Shown in pieces: positions 3,460 to 37,790 of a stretch of 44,491 nt of DNA. The DNA is from a virus. Position 1 is the stretch's first letter. The number at the start of each line of letters is the position of its first letter. The stretch is taken from IMG/VR virus record IMGVR_UViG_3300031963_000285, positions 1 through 44,491 of that record, one strand, 5' to 3'. Position numbers and translations under genes: made by a program. The notes below the pieces were generated by a model, which ran no database searches, was not told where the DNA came from, and worked only from the letters and a program-made list of their open reading frames with translations.

Positions 3460-5756
3460 TTATTCAGGCGGCTTATGGTGCTGCTGTTGTTGTAGGTAGC
3501 AAATTTAACGGATATTTTGGATTGTGTTCTTTCCGGCTGATACAGATGCTTCTGGTTTGCCATAATTGCAAGCCCGGAGCTGATGGATGCGTCGAACGCG
3601 GTCCTGTTGTTGATGTCGAACTTGGCCCAGTTCTCGAGCGTCCGGTGGAACGGCATCGTCCCGATTAGGTCGGGGTCCCGGAACCGGCCCTCCAAATCGA
3701 ACCCGACGTACTTCTCGATGTAAGACTCGATTGCTGCGGCGTGCGCCTGCTTCACGTCCTCTGATGAGTTGGGGATGCCACCCAGCTCCAGCTCTGTCTT
3801 GGACAGCTTGTGCTTCTCCTTGTCCGGCCTGTTCAGGCAGAATCCTCGGTAGCCGCGGTTCTTGAAGTGATACAGCAGCCTCGGCTTGTTGTTCTCAATC
3901 AAGATTGGCATCCCGTAAAAAACACACGCCATCAAGACCTCTTCGAAGAATATCTCCGCGGTCTGCGGCCTTGCGATGTACTCCAAGAAGAACTGGTTTG
4001 TCGGGGCCTTGTCGTCCATGTGGAACTTCGTGAGGCCATGCAGGGCCCCGTTCGACCCACGCCCATCAACGACACCAGAGATGTCATAGGAGTCGCACCC
4101 GAACGCCCCGATGTGCTCGTTCCCCGGGTGCTTCATCCCGCTCCTCTCGTAAACCCTGTTCTGCATCTCCCGTGGTGGCATCCATGCCAAATAGAACCTT
4201 CCCCGTGGGTCCGGGTTGAACACCACCTTGGAGTCCTTGATTCCATCCTTCCAGCTGAATGTCCCGCGGGTGATGTGGTGGGCCTCGATGAGCGAGTCGT
4301 TGTAGTCAATCTGCTGGTAGATTTTGGTCAGGTTGAACAGCGCAGACTTACTCTCATCCCTAAAGGCGTGGCTCTCAGACCGGGGATACTGGCGGTAGAA
4401 TTCATTCAGCGCATCTGCGTCGTTCTTCATCGAGTCGACCTCCGCCTCCCAGTAGTCGATTGCCCCATTCTTGATGAGGGCCCCGTCGGGTCCGTATGTC
4501 TTCTTCTCAGGCTTCCGGAGCACAGGCATCCCGTACATGTCGATGAATCCCTCAAAGTTCCACTCCATGGGAATGAACAGCGAATACAGGCCGCTCTTTG
4601 TGCGCCCGTTCGCATCCCTCTTCGTGATATCTGAGTCCATGTACAGGCTCTTGAAGTTGGAGCCGCCCTTGTCGAGTGCGTTCGACGTTGAGCCCATCAT
4701 GCACTTTCCAATGATTCTGGAACCAAGCCTGAGACAGGTCTTGGTGACACGCCAGTTGTTCAGGATGTTCACGGGCTTGACCCACTTCCCGCTCTCGTCG
4801 TGCAGGAGCAGGAGCAGTTTCTCGCCGTCGTATGAGTTGTCCTCGGTGTTCCTCCAGTCGATTGTCGTGTCGAGGCCATCCATGATGGACGTGTTGAACG
4901 AGCTGAGGTTTTTCTTGGTGATTTTCGAAGCCGGGACCCGGTATGCAAGCTCTGTCTTCGGCTTGTCCATCCCGTCCTGCACAGGTTTGAAGAAGAACGG
5001 AAGGTTGCTGTTGATTGGGACCACCTTGTCCGTGAACATCTTCTTTGCGTCGACACCGGTCTTGGACAGGATTCCAACCCGGGCATCACGGGCCAGCGTG
5101 GCCGTGTTCACCCCTTCTGATGAAGACATGAACGAGAATCCGGAACGACGAATCTTCAGGTAGCACATCCCGAAGCACCGGGGGTCGGCCTTGCATGCCT
5201 CCCAGAAGATGAAGAAAATCCGGTTTGCCTCCCGGAAGTCAGGGTAGCCGATGTCAATCTTCGACCACTGGAGGTACATGTAGTGCGAGCCGGTGATGTA
5301 GGTCGGCTTCCCGTTGTTCGCAAACCACAGCCCCTGTTCGCGCCTGTCGAACTCGTTCTCGATGTAGTCGACCCAAGAATCCCGGAAGTCCTTGGGCATC
5401 TCGTTCCACTTGAAAATCGATGGTATCTTGGCGAGAGCCTTGGGCAATTCGTGTCGTTCCCACTTCTGCTTGGCCGTTTCCGGGTAACTTTGAAGATACT
5501 CCATTCCGGTCATTGCCGGCAATGCAATCTTCAGCCCCTGAATGGAAACGATGTCTCCAATCATCCCCGTCTTGGAGATGACGATGATGTCATAGTGCTC
5601 GTCGTACCCGTAATCCCAAGACTTCCCGGTATTCCTGTTCTCGAGGATGTTCTTAGGAACCACCCCGGACAGGACATGATACAGGCTACTTTGACCTTCT
5701 CTCCGCGAACCCTTGGTTTCCTGTGTCTGACTTCTTGTCTTTGCCATGCTCTTCAC
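3456..5756 (-). CDS. terL: Terminase large subunit (packaging ATPase-nuclease)
   Basis: This 766-residue protein should power DNA packaging and cut concatemers. The ATPase half has a non-classical Walker A near residues 202-208 (KIRRSGFS), a hydrophobic strand ending in Asp-Glu at about 314-321 (Walker B, LLLLHDES) and a motif-III-like GSTS at about 355. The C-terminal half has acidic residues in GAFGCDSYD (about residue 550) and PILIENN, which fit the RNase-H-like nuclease. The degenerate Walker A is common in Bacteroidota phage terminases. An in-frame ATG at 5747 (MAKTRSQ) is an alternative start. The gene overlaps the 5686-5982 gene upstream and the portal downstream. Confidence 0.9.
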   Translation of the reverse strand: MKSMAKTRSQTQETKGSRREGQSSLYHVLSGVVPKNILENRNTGKSWDYGYDEHYDIIVISKTGMIGDIVSIQGLKIALPAMTGMEYLQSYPETAKQKWERHELPKALAKIPSIFKWNEMPKDFRDSWVDYIENEFDRREQGLWFANNGKPTYITGSHYMYLQWSKIDIGYPDFREANRIFFIFWEACKADPRCFGMCYLKIRRSGFSFMSSSEGVNTATLARDARVGILSKTGVDAKKMFTDKVVPINSNLPFFFKPVQDGMDKPKTELAYRVPASKITKKNLSSFNTSIMDGLDTTIDWRNTEDNSYDGEKLLLLLHDESGKWVKPVNILNNWRVTKTCLRLGSRIIGKCMMGSTSNALDKGGSNFKSLYMDSDITKRDANGRTKSGLYSLFIPMEWNFEGFIDMYGMPVLRKPEKKTYGPDGALIKNGAIDYWEAEVDSMKNDADALNEFYRQYPRSESHAFRDESKSALFNLTKIYQQIDYNDSLIEAHHITRGTFSWKDGIKDSKVVFNPDPRGRFYLAWMPPREMQNRVYERSGMKHPGNEHIGAFGCDSYDISGVVDGRGSNGALHGLTKFHMDDKAPTNQFFLEYIARPQTAEIFFEEVLMACVFYGMPILIENNKPRLLYHFKNRGYRGFCLNRPDKEKHKLSKTELELGGIPNSSEDVKQAHAAAIESYIEKYVGFDLEGRFRDPDLIGTMPFHRTLENWAKFDINNRTAFDASISSGLAIMANQKHLYQPERTQSKISVKFATYNNSSTISRLNK

Positions 5757-18589: not shown

Positions 18590-18835
18590 TGTAAGGTGGG
18601 GGGTTCCCCCGGCATGCGCGGGCCTGCCCCCGGCTCCGGAACCACCCCCCTGCTGCGGGGTGGGGGGGTCTGCCTTCGGGGGCTCGGCTCAACTTTTTGG
18701 CCTTTTGCCTGCGGGGCTCGGGGCTCGGGGCTCGGGCTCGGGGCTCGGTCGGTCTGCGTGACGGCCACCCCCTCGGGGCTCGGGGCTTCGGGGTATCCTC
18801 GAGGTTACCTCGCGTAATATCCGACCTTGGTATAT
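18590..18835. repeat. GC-rich low-complexity tract with GGGGCTC repeats
   Basis: Runs of C or G (18598-18670) are followed by about five tandem GGGGCTC/GGGCTC units at 18712-18748 and one further pair at 18775-18786. No credible reading frame. One copy of the 18-bp palindrome (18792-18809) lies at its right edge. Base composition contrasts sharply with the AT-rich DNA on the left. Confidence 0.7.
18792..18809. repeat. 18-bp palindrome copy in candidate origin
   Basis: GGTATCCTCGAGGTTACC; one arm has changed (GGTATC) while the other has not (GTTACC). Confidence 0.75.
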
Positions 18836-18844
18836 TTCACGACT

Positions 18845-18952
18845 CGAATAGTACGAGCTTCGAATAGTACGAACTTCGTAATATTCCGAACTTCGTAATA
18901 TCCAATCTCCGAACATTTCGATTTCCCGAATAGTACGAACTTCGTAATATCC
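18845..18952. repeat. Iteron-like repeats
   Basis: CGAATAGTACGA occurs at 18845-18856 (last bases lead into a variant), 18861-18872 and 18927-18938. GAACTTCGTAATAT occurs at 18871-18884, 18888-18901 and 18937-18950. The two overlap to give a 24-bp unit present twice, and contain the dyad TACGAA-C-TTCGTA. Further CGTAATATCC words occur at 18811 onward. Clustered directly repeated dyads in a non-coding region are typical of initiator-binding sites. Confidence 0.7.
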
Positions 18953-19022
18953 ATTTTCCTGAGCATTCCAAATCCCGTACATTCCGCCCCCCGGATATTT
19001 CAGGACGGCCTTACGCCCCCAA

Positions 19023-19112
19023 GCGCACGCACACGCCCACACGCGCACGCAACGCGCTCGCGCACAGGCACATACGCGCACACACACGCGGTAGTCTATA
19101 CGCGCGCACGCG
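19023..19112. other. Alternating purine-pyrimidine tract
   Basis: About 90 bp dominated by CA/CG alternation (GCACGCACAC, ACGCGCACGC, CGCGCACA, CGCACACACACGCG, CGCGCGCACG). Such DNA favours the left-handed Z form and easy supercoil absorption. No gene seen. Confidence 0.6.
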
Positions 19113-19148
19113 GCTCCTATTACCCCAAATGGCCTCCTCAGCAAAATC

Positions 19149-19306: not shown

Positions 19307-19336
19307 TTGCAGTGAAGAAAATTCATACTAACTTTA
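19307..19336 (+). promoter_or_regulatory. Promoter for the structured RNA and early block
   Basis: TTG (19307-19309), 19-bp spacer, TAACTTTA (19329-19336), one mismatch to TAnnTTTG. Predicted start near 19344, just before the structured RNA. Confidence 0.55.
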
Positions 19337-19343
19337 CACCATA

Positions 19344-19690
19344 ATCATACAGCAGCACGCTACGCTCTTTGGCTCTTACGCCTGACAGACTCACTATGCC
19401 CTTGCGGCAGGGTGGAGTCCTTCGAAGGCAGGTCTCACCCACCCAACCCGTAGCAAGGGCGGTGGGGATGGCTTAGGAGTCCCCAAGCGTGCACGATTGA
19501 TTCAGAGGGCTCGCCAAGTCTGCAACCATGCCCCCTCGAAAGTCCCTTAGCAGTCGGTTAGATTCCGTAAAGGGCGCGGCTAATTCAAAAAGCGCACATA
19601 GCTCGATGCCGTTTCAATATTTCAAGGTGGAAAGGGGCTGCATCCCATGTGGAGAGCAGCAGGCAGGGTTCGACTCCCTCCTCCACCGCT
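19344..19690 (+). ncRNA. Structured RNA with tRNA-like 3' domain, tmRNA-like architecture
   Basis: No reading frame fits, but the strand is dense in paired arms: CCCT/AGGG (19399-19412); CCCACC/GGTGGG (19438-19443/19461-19466) enclosing CCC/GGG; GCTT/AAGC (19471-19474/19485-19488); GAGGG/CCCTC (19505-19509/19533-19537); CCCTT/AAGGG (19544-19548/19570-19574) enclosing CGG/CCG; GCGC/GCGC (19574-19577/19592-19595). A T-arm (AGGG, loop TTCGACT, CCCT, 19666-19680) is followed by CTCCACC (19681-19687), which pairs perfectly with GGTGGAG at 19411-19417 as a 7-bp acceptor-like stem. An inner version (GGTGGA 19626-19631) could pair instead. Multi-hairpin RNA closed by acceptor stem plus T-arm is the plan of tmRNA, but I find no convincing tag frame, and CCA is not encoded. 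Possibly a new phage RNA family. Confidence 0.55.
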
Positions 19691-19729
19691 AGTTTATCTC
19701 ACATTTCTCACTCATAAACGTCTAAAATT

Positions 19730-20326
19730 ATGGACAAGTCACAAATTTTCTCCAAAGGCCTTATCGCATCCGTCAACAAGGCAACCGAGGCCGCAGCATC
19801 CAAAGGCGAAGGCCGCATCAATGCCTTGTGCAACCTTGGTGGTCTCGTGAAGGCCGCAAAGGAGGCCTTTCAGGCCTTCAAGGCCGAGCGGCCTGCCGAG
19901 GCCAAAGGCCTAAAACAAGCGGACGTTCTTGAGGCCTTGTTTGGCTTCGGGAAGATGCAGCAATCGCGGCTCGAAAGGGCTGCCGAGGTATCCGAGGATA
20001 CCAAGACGGCCTTCTTCGCTGCCTGCAGGGCAGACTCCAAATTGAGCCTCTCAATAGAGGGGCTGCTCAAATTCGCTGAGAACTCGGCCAAGGCCGATGG
20101 CGAAGAGGGCGAAGAGGGAGAAGAGCAGGCCGCACCCGAGGCCAAGCCATTGCTCTCTATATCCGCTCGGCTCGAGGATGCCGAGCTCGGGAAGAACTTC
20201 AGCCTTCGGATTATGGCCGATGGCTCGGTCAAAACCACCGCAAGAGCGGTGGACGTTCGGGCAGCAATCGCCCTGCTCGAGGCAGCCCTGAAGGGCTTCC
20301 CCGAGGGCGAGACCGAGGCCGAGTAA
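19730..20326 (+). CDS. First early protein, unknown, Ala/Glu/Lys-rich
   Basis: 198 residues. The N-terminal 120 residues are helical and Ala-rich; an acidic linker of Gly-Glu repeats (about residues 124-132) is followed by a beta-like C-terminal domain (LLSISARLEDAELG, FSLRIMADGSVKTTARAV). No family recognised. It follows the structured RNA by about 40 nt and is the first gene of the rightward block. The GGCC tetramer is unusually frequent in it. A palindrome-based hairpin follows the stop. Confidence 0.65.
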   Translation: MDKSQIFSKGLIASVNKATEAAASKGEGRINALCNLGGLVKAAKEAFQAFKAERPAEAKGLKQADVLEALFGFGKMQQSRLERAAEVSEDTKTAFFAACRADSKLSLSIEGLLKFAENSAKADGEEGEEGEEQAAPEAKPLLSISARLEDAELGKNFSLRIMADGSVKTTARAVDVRAAIALLEAALKGFPEGETEAE

Positions 20327-25599: not shown

Positions 25600-25835
25600 G
25601 CGCGATATCAGAAATCGGGATTGAGATTGCGATGGTTCTTGAGACGGGAATCACCAAGGAACTCAAGTTGGCATTCACAAAGCGGTGGATTGAGGAGGGG
25701 CACTTTTCCCTGCTCGAGACCATGAGAAAGGTGATGTGCCAAGGCGAGAGCGAGGACACGGCATTCGCGACAGCGATGTCTGCGTATTGGACGGGGCACA
25801 TCATCAATCAGTCCCAACGGACATGCCAAAACTGA
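25596..25835 (+). CDS. Small helical early protein
   Basis: 79 residues from ATG 25596 in an ATGA overlap with the gene before (longer start rejected). Mostly helical, slightly acidic, with one possible amphipathic surface (EIGIEIAMVLETGIT). Not recognised. Confidence 0.55.
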   Translation: MSAISEIGIEIAMVLETGITKELKLAFTKRWIEEGHFSLLETMRKVMCQGESEDTAFATAMSAYWTGHIINQSQRTCQN

Positions 25836-26296
25836 CAGACGACGGGTTCACGCTTTCATGCGTGTTCCCTGAGGACTTGGATTCCGGTGGTAACTTCAAG
25901 GTTCCCGATGGCGTGAAGGTCATCGGGAAGATGGCCTTCGACAGGGTCGCTACTATCATCCGCTCTGTGACGCTGCCGTTCGGACTCATTTCGATTGACT
26001 CGTGGGCATTCAAGGGGTGCTACGGGCTAACCGACATCGAGATACCTCAGACGGTCAGGACAATCAGCAAGGGAGCGTTCGAGAGATGCTCGGAACTTGT
26101 CGTGATTGAAATCTACTCGACCTACATGGACTACCTCGGGGACGCATTCAGTGTCTGCGGTAGCGTCAAGCAGGTAGTGGCCATGCAGCACATACAAGAT
26201 GCCGTATGGTCTCAATGCGTCCGGCACTGGGATGCGAGCGACTACCACAAGGACAGGCCGCTCGGAGTGCTTGGGAATAAGCTGAAAAAATTGTGA
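25823..26296 (+). CDS. BspA-type leucine-rich repeat (LRR_5) protein
   Basis: 157 residues from ATG 25823. Residues about 28-95 hold repeats of the LRR_5 type: KVIGKMAFDR, SVTLPFGLISIDSWAFKGCYGLTDIEIP and TVRTISKGAFERCSELVVIEI. Such repeats are abundant in surface proteins of Bacteroidota and protists and mediate binding. In phage this looks like a host-derived accessory gene; no signal peptide, so it acts inside the cell or in the virion. A palindrome copy near the start is read GNFKVP. Confidence 0.75.
   Translation: MPKLTDDGFTLSCVFPEDLDSGGNFKVPDGVKVIGKMAFDRVATIIRSVTLPFGLISIDSWAFKGCYGLTDIEIPQTVRTISKGAFERCSELVVIEIYSTYMDYLGDAFSVCGSVKQVVAMQHIQDAVWSQCVRHWDASDYHKDRPLGVLGNKLKKL
25889..25906. repeat. 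18-bp palindrome copy inside LRR gene
   Basis: GGTAACTTCAAGGTTCCC, one mismatch in the right arm; read GNFKVP. Confidence 0.65.
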
Positions 26297-27154: not shown

Positions 27155-27639
27155 GCAACGAACGCAAACCGCTCCTTACGGAGGAGCAGATTCAGGAGAT
27201 GTTGGAATATGCACGAAAAAGGGGCAATTCAAAATGGTGGTACTTTTTCCAATGGGGAATTGAGATTGAATTCCCAAGCCAATGGGGAGAACTAAATCGC
27301 TTTTATCGTAAGTTGAACGGAATATCCATCATGGATTTATATGAATCGGACATGCCGATTGTCCTCGCCTTCCTGCGCGGAAAAACCAAGCGCGTCCTGA
27401 ACCTCGACCGCCTACGTGCGGATGTAAAGGCGTGGGTGGATGACTCTGAGAGGAAGTATCCTGAGTGGATGCAAGCCAAGTTCGACAAGATGCACATCCA
27501 AGGAAATTACTTTGTATTTGAGAAAGAACAGCTTCGCGTGTTCGCATTTGGATTGGATTCAGATTATACAGAAGCGTTTGCTTCGTTCATCGGCATCAAC
27601 CCCGATGACTACTTCGAGGAAGTGGAGGTGACGGGATGA
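27151..27639 (+). CDS. Early protein of unknown function
   Basis: 162 residues from ATG 27151 (MSNERKPLLTEEQIQEM), in an ATGA overlap. Rich in Trp, Phe and Tyr (WWYFFQWGIEIEFPSQWGE). Its C-terminal part has the FIGIN motif seen as FIGLD in the preceding gene. No family recognised. More AT-rich than the genes before 26 kb. Confidence 0.58.
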   Translation: MSNERKPLLTEEQIQEMLEYARKRGNSKWWYFFQWGIEIEFPSQWGELNRFYRKLNGISIMDLYESDMPIVLAFLRGKTKRVLNLDRLRADVKAWVDDSERKYPEWMQAKFDKMHIQGNYFVFEKEQLRVFAFGLDSDYTEAFASFIGINPDDYFEEVEVTG

Positions 27640-27875
27640 CTGAGGACAAGATTGACACTATAGGCTTCTGGACAACACTTGCATTGATGCTTATTGTTGT
27701 TGTGCTGATAATCGTGGCACTGACCATGAGAAATACAAAGACATCGAACGAGCTCACGCTCACCCGGGACTCTCTCACCGAGTGCCGGTCAAGTCTTTGC
27801 GAGAAGCAAGACTCAGGGATGGTGATTTTCGTCGTCCCTTGTTCAAGAAAATGTAAAGAAGGAGGATTCAAATGA
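27636..27875 (+). CDS. Single-pass membrane protein
   Basis: 79 residues. One strong transmembrane helix at about residues 12-30 (TLALMLIVVVLIIVALTM), then a polar part with several cysteines (TECRSSLCEKQD, PCSRKCK). Begins in an ATGA overlap. N-terminal anchor plus Cys-rich tail might suit a periplasmic or cytoplasmic inhibitor; unknown. Confidence 0.6.
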   Translation: MTEDKIDTIGFWTTLALMLIVVVLIIVALTMRNTKTSNELTLTRDSLTECRSSLCEKQDSGMVIFVVPCSRKCKEGGFK

Positions 27876-28369
27876 GCGAGAAATACACACCTGAGCCGTG
27901 GAATGGCAACACGCATCAAGGACTTGGTGCAAAGGGGAAAATTTTGCCAAAAGCCGATTACCACCGTGCGACAGATTGCGTGAACGCCTGTGCAGGACAG
28001 AGGATTGACCTTGTTGAACTTGCGACAGCACACTATGATTCGTGCGTGTTGTGGGAAACAGAGATGATGAAAGCCATCGGTGAAGATGGTGTAGGCCCTG
28101 TATCTGAGGCCATTGCAAAACTGAAGGCACAGCGAGACGAGGCGGTGAAGGCGTTGGAATCCGCGCCCGTGTACCACTACCTGCCCGAAGTGCCGAAGGA
28201 TGGGGAGTGGGTTATTGGGTATTTCGATTACATGAATCAAGGTATAGCATATCTACACAGTGGGGATAGCTTTTGGAACAGGGTAGGTTATTCGCCTTAC
28301 CCCTACGCGTGGACGCGCATCCCACCGAAGCCGCCTGTGAAGAAAGGAGGAAGTGATGGAAACTCTTGA
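27872..28369 (+). CDS. Moron-like protein with DUF551-like C-terminus
   Basis: 165 residues. The N-terminal part (YTPEPWNG ... ATDCVNACAG) is an often-seen phage segment; a helix follows, then a C-terminal domain EVPKDGEWVIGYFD ... AWTRIPPKPP that resembles DUF551. A clear Shine-Dalgarno (GGAGG, 8 nt before the ATG at 27872), unlike most genes here, suggests recent import. The final PPKPPV is also the end of the 28624-28836 product. Confidence 0.65.
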   Translation: MSEKYTPEPWNGNTHQGLGAKGKILPKADYHRATDCVNACAGQRIDLVELATAHYDSCVLWETEMMKAIGEDGVGPVSEAIAKLKAQRDEAVKALESAPVYHYLPEVPKDGEWVIGYFDYMNQGIAYLHSGDSFWNRVGYSPYPYAWTRIPPKPPVKKGGSDGNS

Positions 28370-36340: not shown

Positions 36341-36404
36341 CGGCCCGTGGTCGCATTACACGGGCCACCTTGGCCGGGGCAGGGTTCGACTCCCTCCCCG
36401 GTCA
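36341..36404 (+). ncRNA. Two tandem hairpins, the second T-arm-like
   Basis: GGCCCGTG (36342-36349), 9-nt loop, CACGGGCC (36359-36366); then GGCCGGGG (36372-36379), C, AGGG, loop TTCGACT, CCCT, CCCCGGTC (36396-36403). The second is an acceptor-like stem stacked directly on a T-arm. The 20 bases GGCAGGGTTCGACTCCCTCC also occur in the structured RNA at 19.66 kb. A T run (36328-36339) precedes. Not a normal tRNA (no D or anticodon arm). Confidence 0.5.
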
Positions 36405-37132: not shown

Positions 37133-37215
37133 TGCGGGTTGGCGTAACCGGGAATGAATACCGGCTTGGGCAGCGTTCCTTACAGGAGATTGGGGTTCGA
37201 ATCCCTGACCCGCAA
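37133..37215 (+). tRNA. tRNA-like element with class-II size
   Basis: Acceptor TGCGGGT (37133-37139) pairs perfectly with ACCCGCA (37208-37214), discriminator A. The T-arm is TGGGG/TTCGAAT/CCCTG (37191-37207) and a short TCCT/AGGA stem (37177-37187) could be a variable arm. The D-arm and a regular anticodon arm are not found; CCGG/CCGG (37148-37151/37161-37164) is the only other stem. Could be an odd tRNA or a tRNA mimic. Confidence 0.45.
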
Positions 37216-37218
37216 CGA

Positions 37219-37309
37219 GAGTGGTGCATGGTGCTGAACATGGTGCGCTGTGTTCGTTGGTTCGAGTCCAACTTGGTGTAAATGCGGGGTTCGATTCCCC
37301 GCCCACTCA
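37219..37309 (+). tRNA. tRNA-like element with two T-arm-like hairpins
   Basis: GAGTGG (37219-37224) pairs with CCACTC (37303-37308). The 3' T-arm is CGGGG/TTCGATT/CCCCG (37285-37301). A second perfect T-arm-like hairpin GTTGG/TTCGAGT/CCAAC lies inside (37256-37272). Between are three direct repeats of TGGTGC. No standard D or anticodon arm. Confidence 0.4.
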
Positions 37310-37311
37310 CA

Positions 37312-37635
37312 ATGAAATCAGAAATATGCTACCCCGGTGAAGAGGCCAAGTGCTGGGTGTGTGGCATGGAAGAATGTAAATGGCCGGGAAATGATTCAAC
37401 TCAAATCAGTATGTCACAATTCAAATTAAAGGACGTTGACCACAAACGTGGAAACCTTCAAAGCGCACTCGGTGTCTCGATTGAAAGAGTGGAGGTGTTC
37501 GCAGAAAGACTCACTAAAATCATCAAAAGCGGAGAGACATCAGTCTCTAGGACGCTTGAGAAGATGTCAGAGATTGCCGAGGACCAGAACGAGCTTACAC
37601 TCATCGTGTTCACCGTTGCAAAGATGCTGTCGTGA
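37312..37635 (+). CDS. Small helical protein with N-terminal Cys motif
   Basis: 107 residues from ATG 37312, three bases after the tRNA-like element; an internal start at 37411 (MSQFKLKDVDHK) would drop the YPGEEAKCWVCGMEEC part, which could bind zinc. The rest is helical. Possibly related to the 36511 gene. Function unknown. Confidence 0.52.
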   Translation: MKSEICYPGEEAKCWVCGMEECKWPGNDSTQISMSQFKLKDVDHKRGNLQSALGVSIERVEVFAERLTKIIKSGETSVSRTLEKMSEIAEDQNELTLIVFTVAKMLS

Positions 37636-37749: not shown

Positions 37750-37790
37750 TAAGGGAGGTAACCTCGAGGTTACCTCCCTTTTTTTTTTGC
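37750..37790 (+). terminator. Bidirectional-looking terminator built on the palindrome
   Basis: The palindrome copy 37757-37774 (GGTAACCTCGAGGTTACC, the only perfect 18-bp dyad) is extended by AAGGGA/TCCCTT to a 15-bp perfect arm and followed by ten T. It ends the rightward block and faces the end of the giant leftward gene. Confidence 0.88.

What the first reader, a model, noticed from the sequence alone, without database searches (positions are those of the whole stretch)
19344..19690. Strongly structured RNA with tRNA-like closing domain
About 350 nt with a promoter in front, no coding potential, six or more good stem-loops, and a 7-bp closing stem GGTGGAG/CTCCACC joined to a T-arm. The plan resembles tmRNA, yet no accepted tag sequence is found (a weak candidate frame GCA...TAG lies at 19454-19477). 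It begins the early block, like large phage RNAs such as GOLLD or ROOL, which also sit near tRNA-like genes.
Basis: partly seen in the sequence, partly recalled or inferred. Interest (0 to 1): 0.72.

Follow-up and report, generated by a model that had tools for sequence, protein, structure and literature searches.

The report
Anticodon-less tRNA mimic before phage genes
Just ahead of its first early gene this virus of bacteria carries a small RNA that copies the top half of a transfer RNA but has no working anticodon; relatives carry many such copies in front of genes, probably so that the host's tRNA-trimming enzymes cut the viral messages there.

Summary
Window 19344-19690 is the ~390-nt untranslated leader of the early operon of a Flavobacteriia-type groEL podophage. 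It is not a tmRNA, permuted tmRNA, GOLLD or ROOL (no Rfam hit even at E<=10), and the region folds no better than shuffles (z -0.44). What stands out is its last 62 nt (19626-19687): a 12-bp acceptor/T-arm helix with a canonical T-loop, with a single short hairpin where the D and anticodon arms belong. The window has three more (36372-36403, a bare minihelix; 37133-37215; 37219-37309). In 80 related viral records the T-arm motif occurs 35 times versus 4 for the reversed control. Nearly all keep the T stem, most keep an acceptor stem while the middle shrinks or is scrambled, helices show compensatory changes between homologues, and most sit 17-77 nt before a start codon. So they are maintained mRNA 5'-UTR elements, not dead tRNA genes. 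Best guess: minimal RNase P (and 3'-end enzyme) substrates that cut early mRNAs ('tRNA punctuation'). Leaders of some relatives also carry the boxA of host rRNA operons; the window's boxA is weaker. The mechanism is inferred; a cultured phage (Maribacter phage Panino) allows a test.

The parts
19307..19336 (+). promoter-like site: TTG (19307-19309), 19 nt, TAACTTTA (19329-19336)
   Evidence: read from sequence; perfect TTTG..TAnnTTTG sites stand at the same place in MW202828 and L102
19341..19625 (+). untranslated leader, upstream part; no structure beyond shuffles
   Evidence: z -0.27; z -0.44 for the whole region; no Rfam family
19364..19380 (+). two overlapping boxA-like words, GCTCTTTGG and GCTCTTACG (weak match to host rrn boxA GTTCTTTGA)
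   Evidence: host boxA word established
19626..19688 (+). mini tRNA-like element: GGTGGA/TCCACC + GG/CC + bulged C19664 + AGGG/CCCT, T-loop TTCGACT, single internal hairpin (GCTGC..GCAGC), discriminator G19688, then CTA
   Evidence: MFE; descriptor hit; family evidence
19730..20326 (+). first early gene (198 aa), homologue of the MW202828 gene that also follows a leader plus a tRNA-like element
   Evidence: BLASTP E 7.5e-7
36372..36404 (+). second copy: contiguous 12-bp minihelix GGCCGGGG-c-AGGG-TTCGACT-CCCT-CCCCGGTC, exact 20-nt T-arm repeat of 19662-19681
   Evidence: z -2.83
37133..37215 (+). third tRNA-like element: 7-bp acceptor TGCGGGT/ACCCGCA, D-like region, shrunken anticodon-like hairpin, T arm TGGGG TTCGAAT CCCTG
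   Evidence: Rfam tRNA 28.1 bits, just under the gathering score 29
37219..37309 (+). fourth tRNA-like element: GAGTGGT/CCCACTC acceptor, T arm CGGGG TTCGATT CCCCG
   Evidence: z -2.24
37312..37635 (+). small early ORF (107 aa) whose ATG lies 3 nt after the acceptor stem of the fourth element

Best explanation
Window 19341-19729 is the 5' leader of the phage's early transcript. Its 3' part, 19626-19687, is a tRNA top-half mimic: acceptor stem stacked on a T-arm, with a short hairpin in place of the D and anticodon arms. It belongs to a set of such elements that phages of this group place directly in front of early genes. They are unlikely to decode, because they lack a normal 7-nt anticodon loop, but they keep what RNase P and tRNA 3'-end enzymes recognise: acceptor plus T helix of tRNA length, T-loop, often a GG in the linker, and C at position 74. 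Most likely the host's RNase P cuts at the 5' side and a 3'-end nuclease (RNase Z or another) at the 3' side, so the polycistronic early RNA is punctuated into mRNAs whose 5' ends lie about 20-80 nt before the start codon. SHOWN by computation: existence, structure, covariation between homologues, recurrence, position before ORFs, boxA in the leaders of some relatives. INFERRED: transcription, cleavage, the enzymes, and the benefit (mRNA 5' ends and stability, perhaps uncoupling genes). The boxA-like words upstream suggest that the leader also recruits the host rRNA antitermination factors; this is well supported in relatives and weakly in the window itself.
For: (1) Exact T-arm repeat and four elements in one genome, all on the early strand and intergenic. 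(2) GGTTCGANTCC: 30 hits in 40 related viral records versus 3 for the reversed pattern, and 5 versus 1 in 40 more, mostly short fragments. (3) Of these 35 hits, chosen by loop motif only, 32 have all five T-stem pairs; acceptor score >=14 in 21 against a null mean of 2.35 (maximum 8 of 200 shuffles); most have an ORF start 17-77 nt after the acceptor. (4) Descriptor scan: 38 hits versus 0.8 in Markov controls, partly canonical tRNAs of other phages, and 31 versus 2.0 in further related genomes. (5) Homologues in front of the same gene keep pairing while sequence changes: GGGCATT/AATGCCC versus GGTCGAT/ATCGACC before a 99%-identical protein; eleven-sequence set 98.5% paired, 5 of 12 pairs changed on both sides, 0-1 in slid controls. 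(6) The middle varies from 10 to about 80 nt. (7) MW202828 and L102 repeat the plan promoter, leader, mini-tRNA, first gene. (8) GTTCTTTGA occurs in 32 of 73 Bacteroidota 16S leaders (0.3% by chance) and in the leaders of MW202828, L102 and L060. (9) Bacterial RNase P cleaves minihelices of acceptor stem, T-stem and T-loop efficiently (PMC11143913, PMC11221534).
Against: No expression or cleavage data. The element is not universal: several relatives start what looks like the same first gene from a short plain leader, and many fragmentary records show no T-arm. In L060 an ORF lies between boxA and the tRNA-like element, so the two modules are separable. The window's boxA and -7 box are imperfect. 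The window's own element has no close homologue except the distant MW202828 one, whose T-loop is 8 nt. CCA is not encoded, which weakens RNase P recognition in some systems. The 107-nt gap between 36403 and the next start codon does not fit the usual spacing.
Confidence: 0.5

Rival explanations
1. Decaying tRNA genes: leftovers of an ancestral tRNA cluster, with no function.
For: Some members keep a canonical class II D-arm (TGGCGGAATGGTAGACGC) with a broken anticodon arm; the related phage Panino has a full tRNA set.
Against: Acceptor and T helices are kept by compensatory changes between homologues while only the middle decays; elements recur in front of orthologous genes; some minis have linkers of only 10-12 nt with near-perfect 12-bp helices.
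Confidence: 0.1
2. Translation or stability element of the 5' UTR: the tRNA-like fold binds a tRNA-binding host factor or the ribosome, or protects the mRNA 5' end, and sets expression of the next gene without being cut.
For: Position 17-77 nt before start codons with an A-rich spacer such as CTAACTTTAAATTAAATCAAAATG.
Against: No shared sequence beyond the T-loop and C74; the acceptor sequences are unrelated, so control by one specific synthetase is unlikely.
Confidence: 0.25
3. The tRNA-like RNA is itself the product: a released, CCA-tailed small RNA acting in trans, for example as decoy for tRNA-binding factors or tRNA-targeting defence.
For: C74 is nearly invariant (30 of 37, plus 5 ambiguous); several copies per genome; a 12-bp acceptor/T helix suits EF-Tu, CCA enzyme and processing enzymes (general knowledge).
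Against: Most copies are tied to the start of an ORF; many anticodon nucleases need an anticodon loop that is absent.
Confidence: 0.1
4. Diverged tmRNA, permuted tmRNA or a large phage RNA (GOLLD, ROOL).
For: T-arm and 3' end resemble those of tmRNA; Panino encodes a permuted tmRNA.
Against: No Rfam hit at E<=10; no ARAGORN hit; complete local 62-nt fold; relatives have unrelated sequence upstream.
Confidence: 0.03
5. attP site: a copy of the 3' end of a host tRNA gene used by an integrase.
For: T-arm sequences are typical attB cores (general knowledge).
Against: No tyrosine integrase in the window, although the window is a fragment; four copies; each has its own matching 5' acceptor strand, which attP does not need.
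Confidence: 0.02

Closest known systems
RNase P model substrates (AT1, pATSer: acceptor stem, T-stem and T-loop hairpins)
   Same: Same minimal architecture, a 12-layer acceptor/T helix with T-loop; efficiently cut by bacterial RNase P (PMC11143913, PMC11221534).
   Different: Those are synthetic; these are natural, encoded by phages in front of ORFs, and usually lack CCA.
mascRNA at the 3' end of MALAT1 (from general knowledge)
   Same: About 60-nt tRNA-like domain with acceptor and T arm and a small middle part; RNase P and RNase Z define RNA ends.
   Different: Eukaryotic, at the 3' end of a nuclear RNA; here phage, upstream of coding genes.
tRNA punctuation of mitochondrial transcripts (from general knowledge)
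   Same: tRNA-shaped spacers cut out to release mRNAs.
   Different: There real tRNAs; here the decoding arm is gone.
phage RNAs cut by RNase P: M3 RNA and phage-derived antisense C4 RNA (listed in PMC11143913)
   Same: Phage-encoded non-tRNA RNase P substrates.
   Different: Single RNAs, not a recurrent 5'-UTR element.
boxA leaders of rRNA operons and lambdoid nut sites
   Same: Relatives' leaders carry the GTTCTTTGA word of Bacteroidota rrn leaders.
   Different: The tRNA-like element is extra and separable; the window's boxA is imperfect.
permuted tmRNA (RF04321) of Maribacter phage Panino
   Same: tRNA-like T-arm domain in a related phage.
   Different: The window RNA does not match the model, and its acceptor 5' strand lies upstream, not downstream.

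Membership tests
tRNA (RF00005) | cloverleaf scoring above the gathering threshold | tested here: not met
   19626-19687 no hit at all; 37133-37215 28.1 bits against 29; ARAGORN none
tRNA (RF00005) | anticodon arm with 7-nt loop | tested here: not met
   a single hairpin or none in the window elements 1 and 2; linkers of 10-32 nt in the minis. Element 4 has a possible 7-nt loop (TTCGAGT) but no normal D arm
tRNA (RF00005) | T-arm and acceptor helix of tRNA length | tested here: met
   12 bp plus TTCGACT loop; covariation in relatives
tmRNA (RF00023) and permuted tmRNA (RF04321) | match to covariance model | tested here: not met
   none at E<=10, while Panino's is found
GOLLD, ROOL | match to covariance model | tested here: not met
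   none at E<=10
RNase P substrate | stacked acceptor and T helix with T-loop | tested here: met
   structure and family conservation
RNase P substrate | cleavage at the 5' side of the acceptor stem | not testable with these tools
   needs biochemistry or 5'-end mapping
rrn-type antitermination leader | boxA shortly after the promoter | tested here: inconclusive
   clear in MW202828 and L102; in the window GCTCTTTGG, 7 of 9 letters of GTTCTTTGA, plus a second partial word

The most novel reading that the evidence does not exclude
A lineage of Bacteroidota phages has turned tRNA genes into a general cis-acting punctuation system: anticodon-less tRNA top halves, each with its own sequence, placed before early ORFs and in some phages behind an rRNA-operon-like boxA leader, so that early expression is built on the host's stable-RNA transcription and processing machinery.
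Probability: 0.4. Interest if true: 0.8.

Novelty: new variant of a known kind. Interest (0 to 1): 0.6.

Why it matters
Phage tRNA genes are usually explained by codon supply or by resistance to tRNA-cutting defence. These elements have lost the decoding half but are maintained by selection, so at least in this lineage tRNA shape is kept for another reason, most simply RNA processing. It would show natural minihelix substrates of bacterial RNase P in use as mRNA punctuation, explain 'failed' tRNA calls in phage genomes, and is directly testable in a cultured phage.

Tried and rejected
Rfam at gathering and at E<=10 and ARAGORN on the region: nothing relevant. BLASTN of the leader against phages: no match; BLASTN of the L102 leader: none. 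Thermodynamic excess: absent, so a large structured RNA is not supported. Exact 20-mer scan of IMG/VR: besides two contigs identical to the window it found three unrelated contigs, so that word is a recurring T-arm solution and not a marker of kinship. Alignment A2 shows massive covariation, but its members were picked by pairing, so it is circular and not used as proof; A1 and the gene-anchored pairs are used instead. A first count on A1 with a structure written one column off was a mistake and is replaced. attP idea: no integrase. Cellulophaga phage phi18:3 has no tRNA-like hit at all, so the elements do not occur in every relative. Papers: no description of such phage 5'-UTR elements found in the open library; subscription papers are not covered.

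Full report
What is there. The window is a 44.5-kb fragment of a podophage-type genome. Its terminase is 73% identical to that of MW202828 (Manatee Spring, 60.9 kb) and 31-46% identical to those of Flavobacterium 'elemo', Cellulophaga and Tenacibaculum phages; it carries groEL. Late genes run leftwards and early genes rightwards from a ~1.6-kb largely non-coding region. The finding sits at its right edge, directly before the first early gene (19730-20326).

The observation. The region is non-coding with a plausible Bacteroidota promoter, but as a whole it is not more structured than shuffled sequence (z -0.44; upstream part z -0.27). The exceptional part is the last 62 nt. GGTGGA (19626-19631) pairs with TCCACC (19682-19687), then G19662-G19663 with C19680-C19681, a bulged C, AGGG with CCCT, and the T-loop TTCGACT: twelve base pairs, the length of a tRNA acceptor plus T helix. 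Between the 5' acceptor strand and the T arm stands one hairpin (GCTGC...GCAGC) instead of D and anticodon arms.

It is not a tmRNA, a permuted tmRNA, GOLLD or ROOL. As a control, the same kind of scan finds a permuted tmRNA (RF04321) in the related phage Panino.

Recurrence in the window. The exact 20-mer GGCAGGGTTCGACTCCCTCC recurs at 36378-36397 inside a contiguous 12-bp minihelix. Two further tRNA-like elements stand in tandem at 37133-37215 (tRNA model 28.1 bits, threshold 29) and 37219-37309, the latter's acceptor ending 3 nt before an ATG. MW202828 also has two T-arms in tandem at the end of its early block (L108 610 and 677); the better one keeps acceptor, D-arm and T arm but no anticodon arm.

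Recurrence in relatives. Eighty groEL-phage loci were fetched. A descriptor (acceptor, linker, T arm) gives 38 hits at score 24 or more against 0.8 in Markov sequences (a good part of these are canonical tRNAs of the unrelated loci L003, L005, L010 and of L109), and 31 against 2.0 in further related genome pieces. The simple motif GGTTCGANTCC occurs 30 times in 40 records against 3 for the reversed motif, and 5 against 1 in 40 mostly shorter records. Among these 35 loop-selected sites 32 have a full T stem, and 21 have a strong acceptor partner against 2.35 expected. Linkers range from 10 nt to tRNA length and longer, with scrambled anticodon regions (3-, 8-, 9-nt or very long loops). Hence the top half is under selection and the decoding half is not.

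Selection, not decay. L157 and L131 stand before a 99%-identical protein, with acceptor stems GGGCATT/AATGCCC and GGTCGAT/ATCGACC: three compensated pairs around an unchanged T arm. L136, before a 40%-identical homologue, has wholly different acceptor and T stems, still paired. L081 and L084, and L075 and L080, show the same. In eleven distinct elements of one class, most of them before the same gene, 98.5% of cells pair and 5 of 12 pairs change on both sides, against 0-1 in slid controls. The members of that class are related, so cells are not independent events; and in two of them (L116, L133) the acceptor was recognised partly by its pairing.

Position. In most cases an ORF begins shortly after the acceptor, with an A-rich spacer such as CTAACTTTAAATTAAATCAAAATG. 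The nucleotide after the discriminator is C in 30 of 37 distinct elements, and in about 5 more if the discriminator is placed one base earlier. Linkers of the shortest elements mostly contain TGG, reminiscent of D-loop G18-G19; this was seen by eye and not tested.

The leader. In MW202828 and in L102 (groEL 60% identical) a perfect TTTG-TAnnTTTG promoter is followed by GTTCTTTGACATA, about 190-310 nt of unrelated sequence, a mini tRNA-like element and the start codon. The MW202828 gene is homologous to the window's first early gene (E 7.5e-7). GTTCTTTGA is found 80-210 nt before the 16S rRNA in 32 of 73 Bacteroidota operons against 0.3% by chance, so the phage word equals the host rrn boxA. 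The window has GCTCTTTGG and GCTCTTACG at 19364-19380, a weaker version. In L060 an ORF separates boxA from the tRNA-like element, and several relatives have neither; so the modules are optional and separable.

Mechanism. Bacterial RNase P reads the stacked acceptor and T helix and the T-loop, and cuts minihelices of this shape efficiently (PMC11143913, PMC11221534). With an element 20-80 nt before start codons, the simplest function is cutting: RNase P at the 5' side and a tRNA 3'-end nuclease behind the discriminator would free each gene's mRNA from its upstream RNA. This is inference. The main rival is an uncut translation or stability element.

Limits. The cultured phage Panino has an unannotated element of the same kind (acceptor TGTGGGT from 4942, ACCCACA to 5031, TCTAATTTTAAA, ATG 5054) with an abnormal anticodon region, and is the best place for a test.

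Noticed in passing
L298 27590-27798 (Maribacter phage Panino): A permuted tmRNA, Rfam RF04321 at 62.2 bits, inside a phage tRNA cluster; the record annotates an overlapping tmRNA at 27557-27889 without saying that it is permuted.
   Followed up: partly
L298 4942-5031: Unannotated tRNA-like element with abnormal anticodon region 22 nt before the CDS at 5054 in a cultured phage.
   Followed up: partly
window 10753, 15327, 17568, 18792, 21389, 22188, 26606, 28894, 37757 and others: More than a dozen copies of a palindrome GGTAACyTCrArGTTACC spread over the window; the copy at 37751 looks like a terminator, the others may be hairpins or operators.
   Followed up: no
L137, L128, L121, L123, L114 and others: A hairpin AGTGTCTTCAAAGACAC stands immediately before the acceptor stem of many elements, and a conserved hairpin GCCTCAG..CTGAGGC follows in one gene-anchored class.
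   Followed up: no
L004 182-201 (IMGVR_UViG_2799112714_000001): A bare minihelix AGCACGG-CAGGG-TTCGACT-CCCTC-CCGTGCT-ACCA with an encoded ACCA end in an unrelated viral contig.
   Followed up: no
L116 1793 (same as L032 7681): A near-canonical class II tRNA with an 8-nt anticodon loop (ARAGORN: tRNA-???(caag)) placed 20 nt before an ORF.
   Followed up: no
window 18700-19120: Low-complexity repeats (CGGGGCTCGGGG, GAATAGTACGAACTTCG, CACACGCGC) in the divergent intergenic region, possibly a replication origin or regulatory region; a similar CACGCG-rich stretch exists in MW202828.
   Followed up: no
window 25736-26296: BspA-type leucine-rich repeat protein in the early block (Pfam PF13306, E 2.5e-18).
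   Followed up: no
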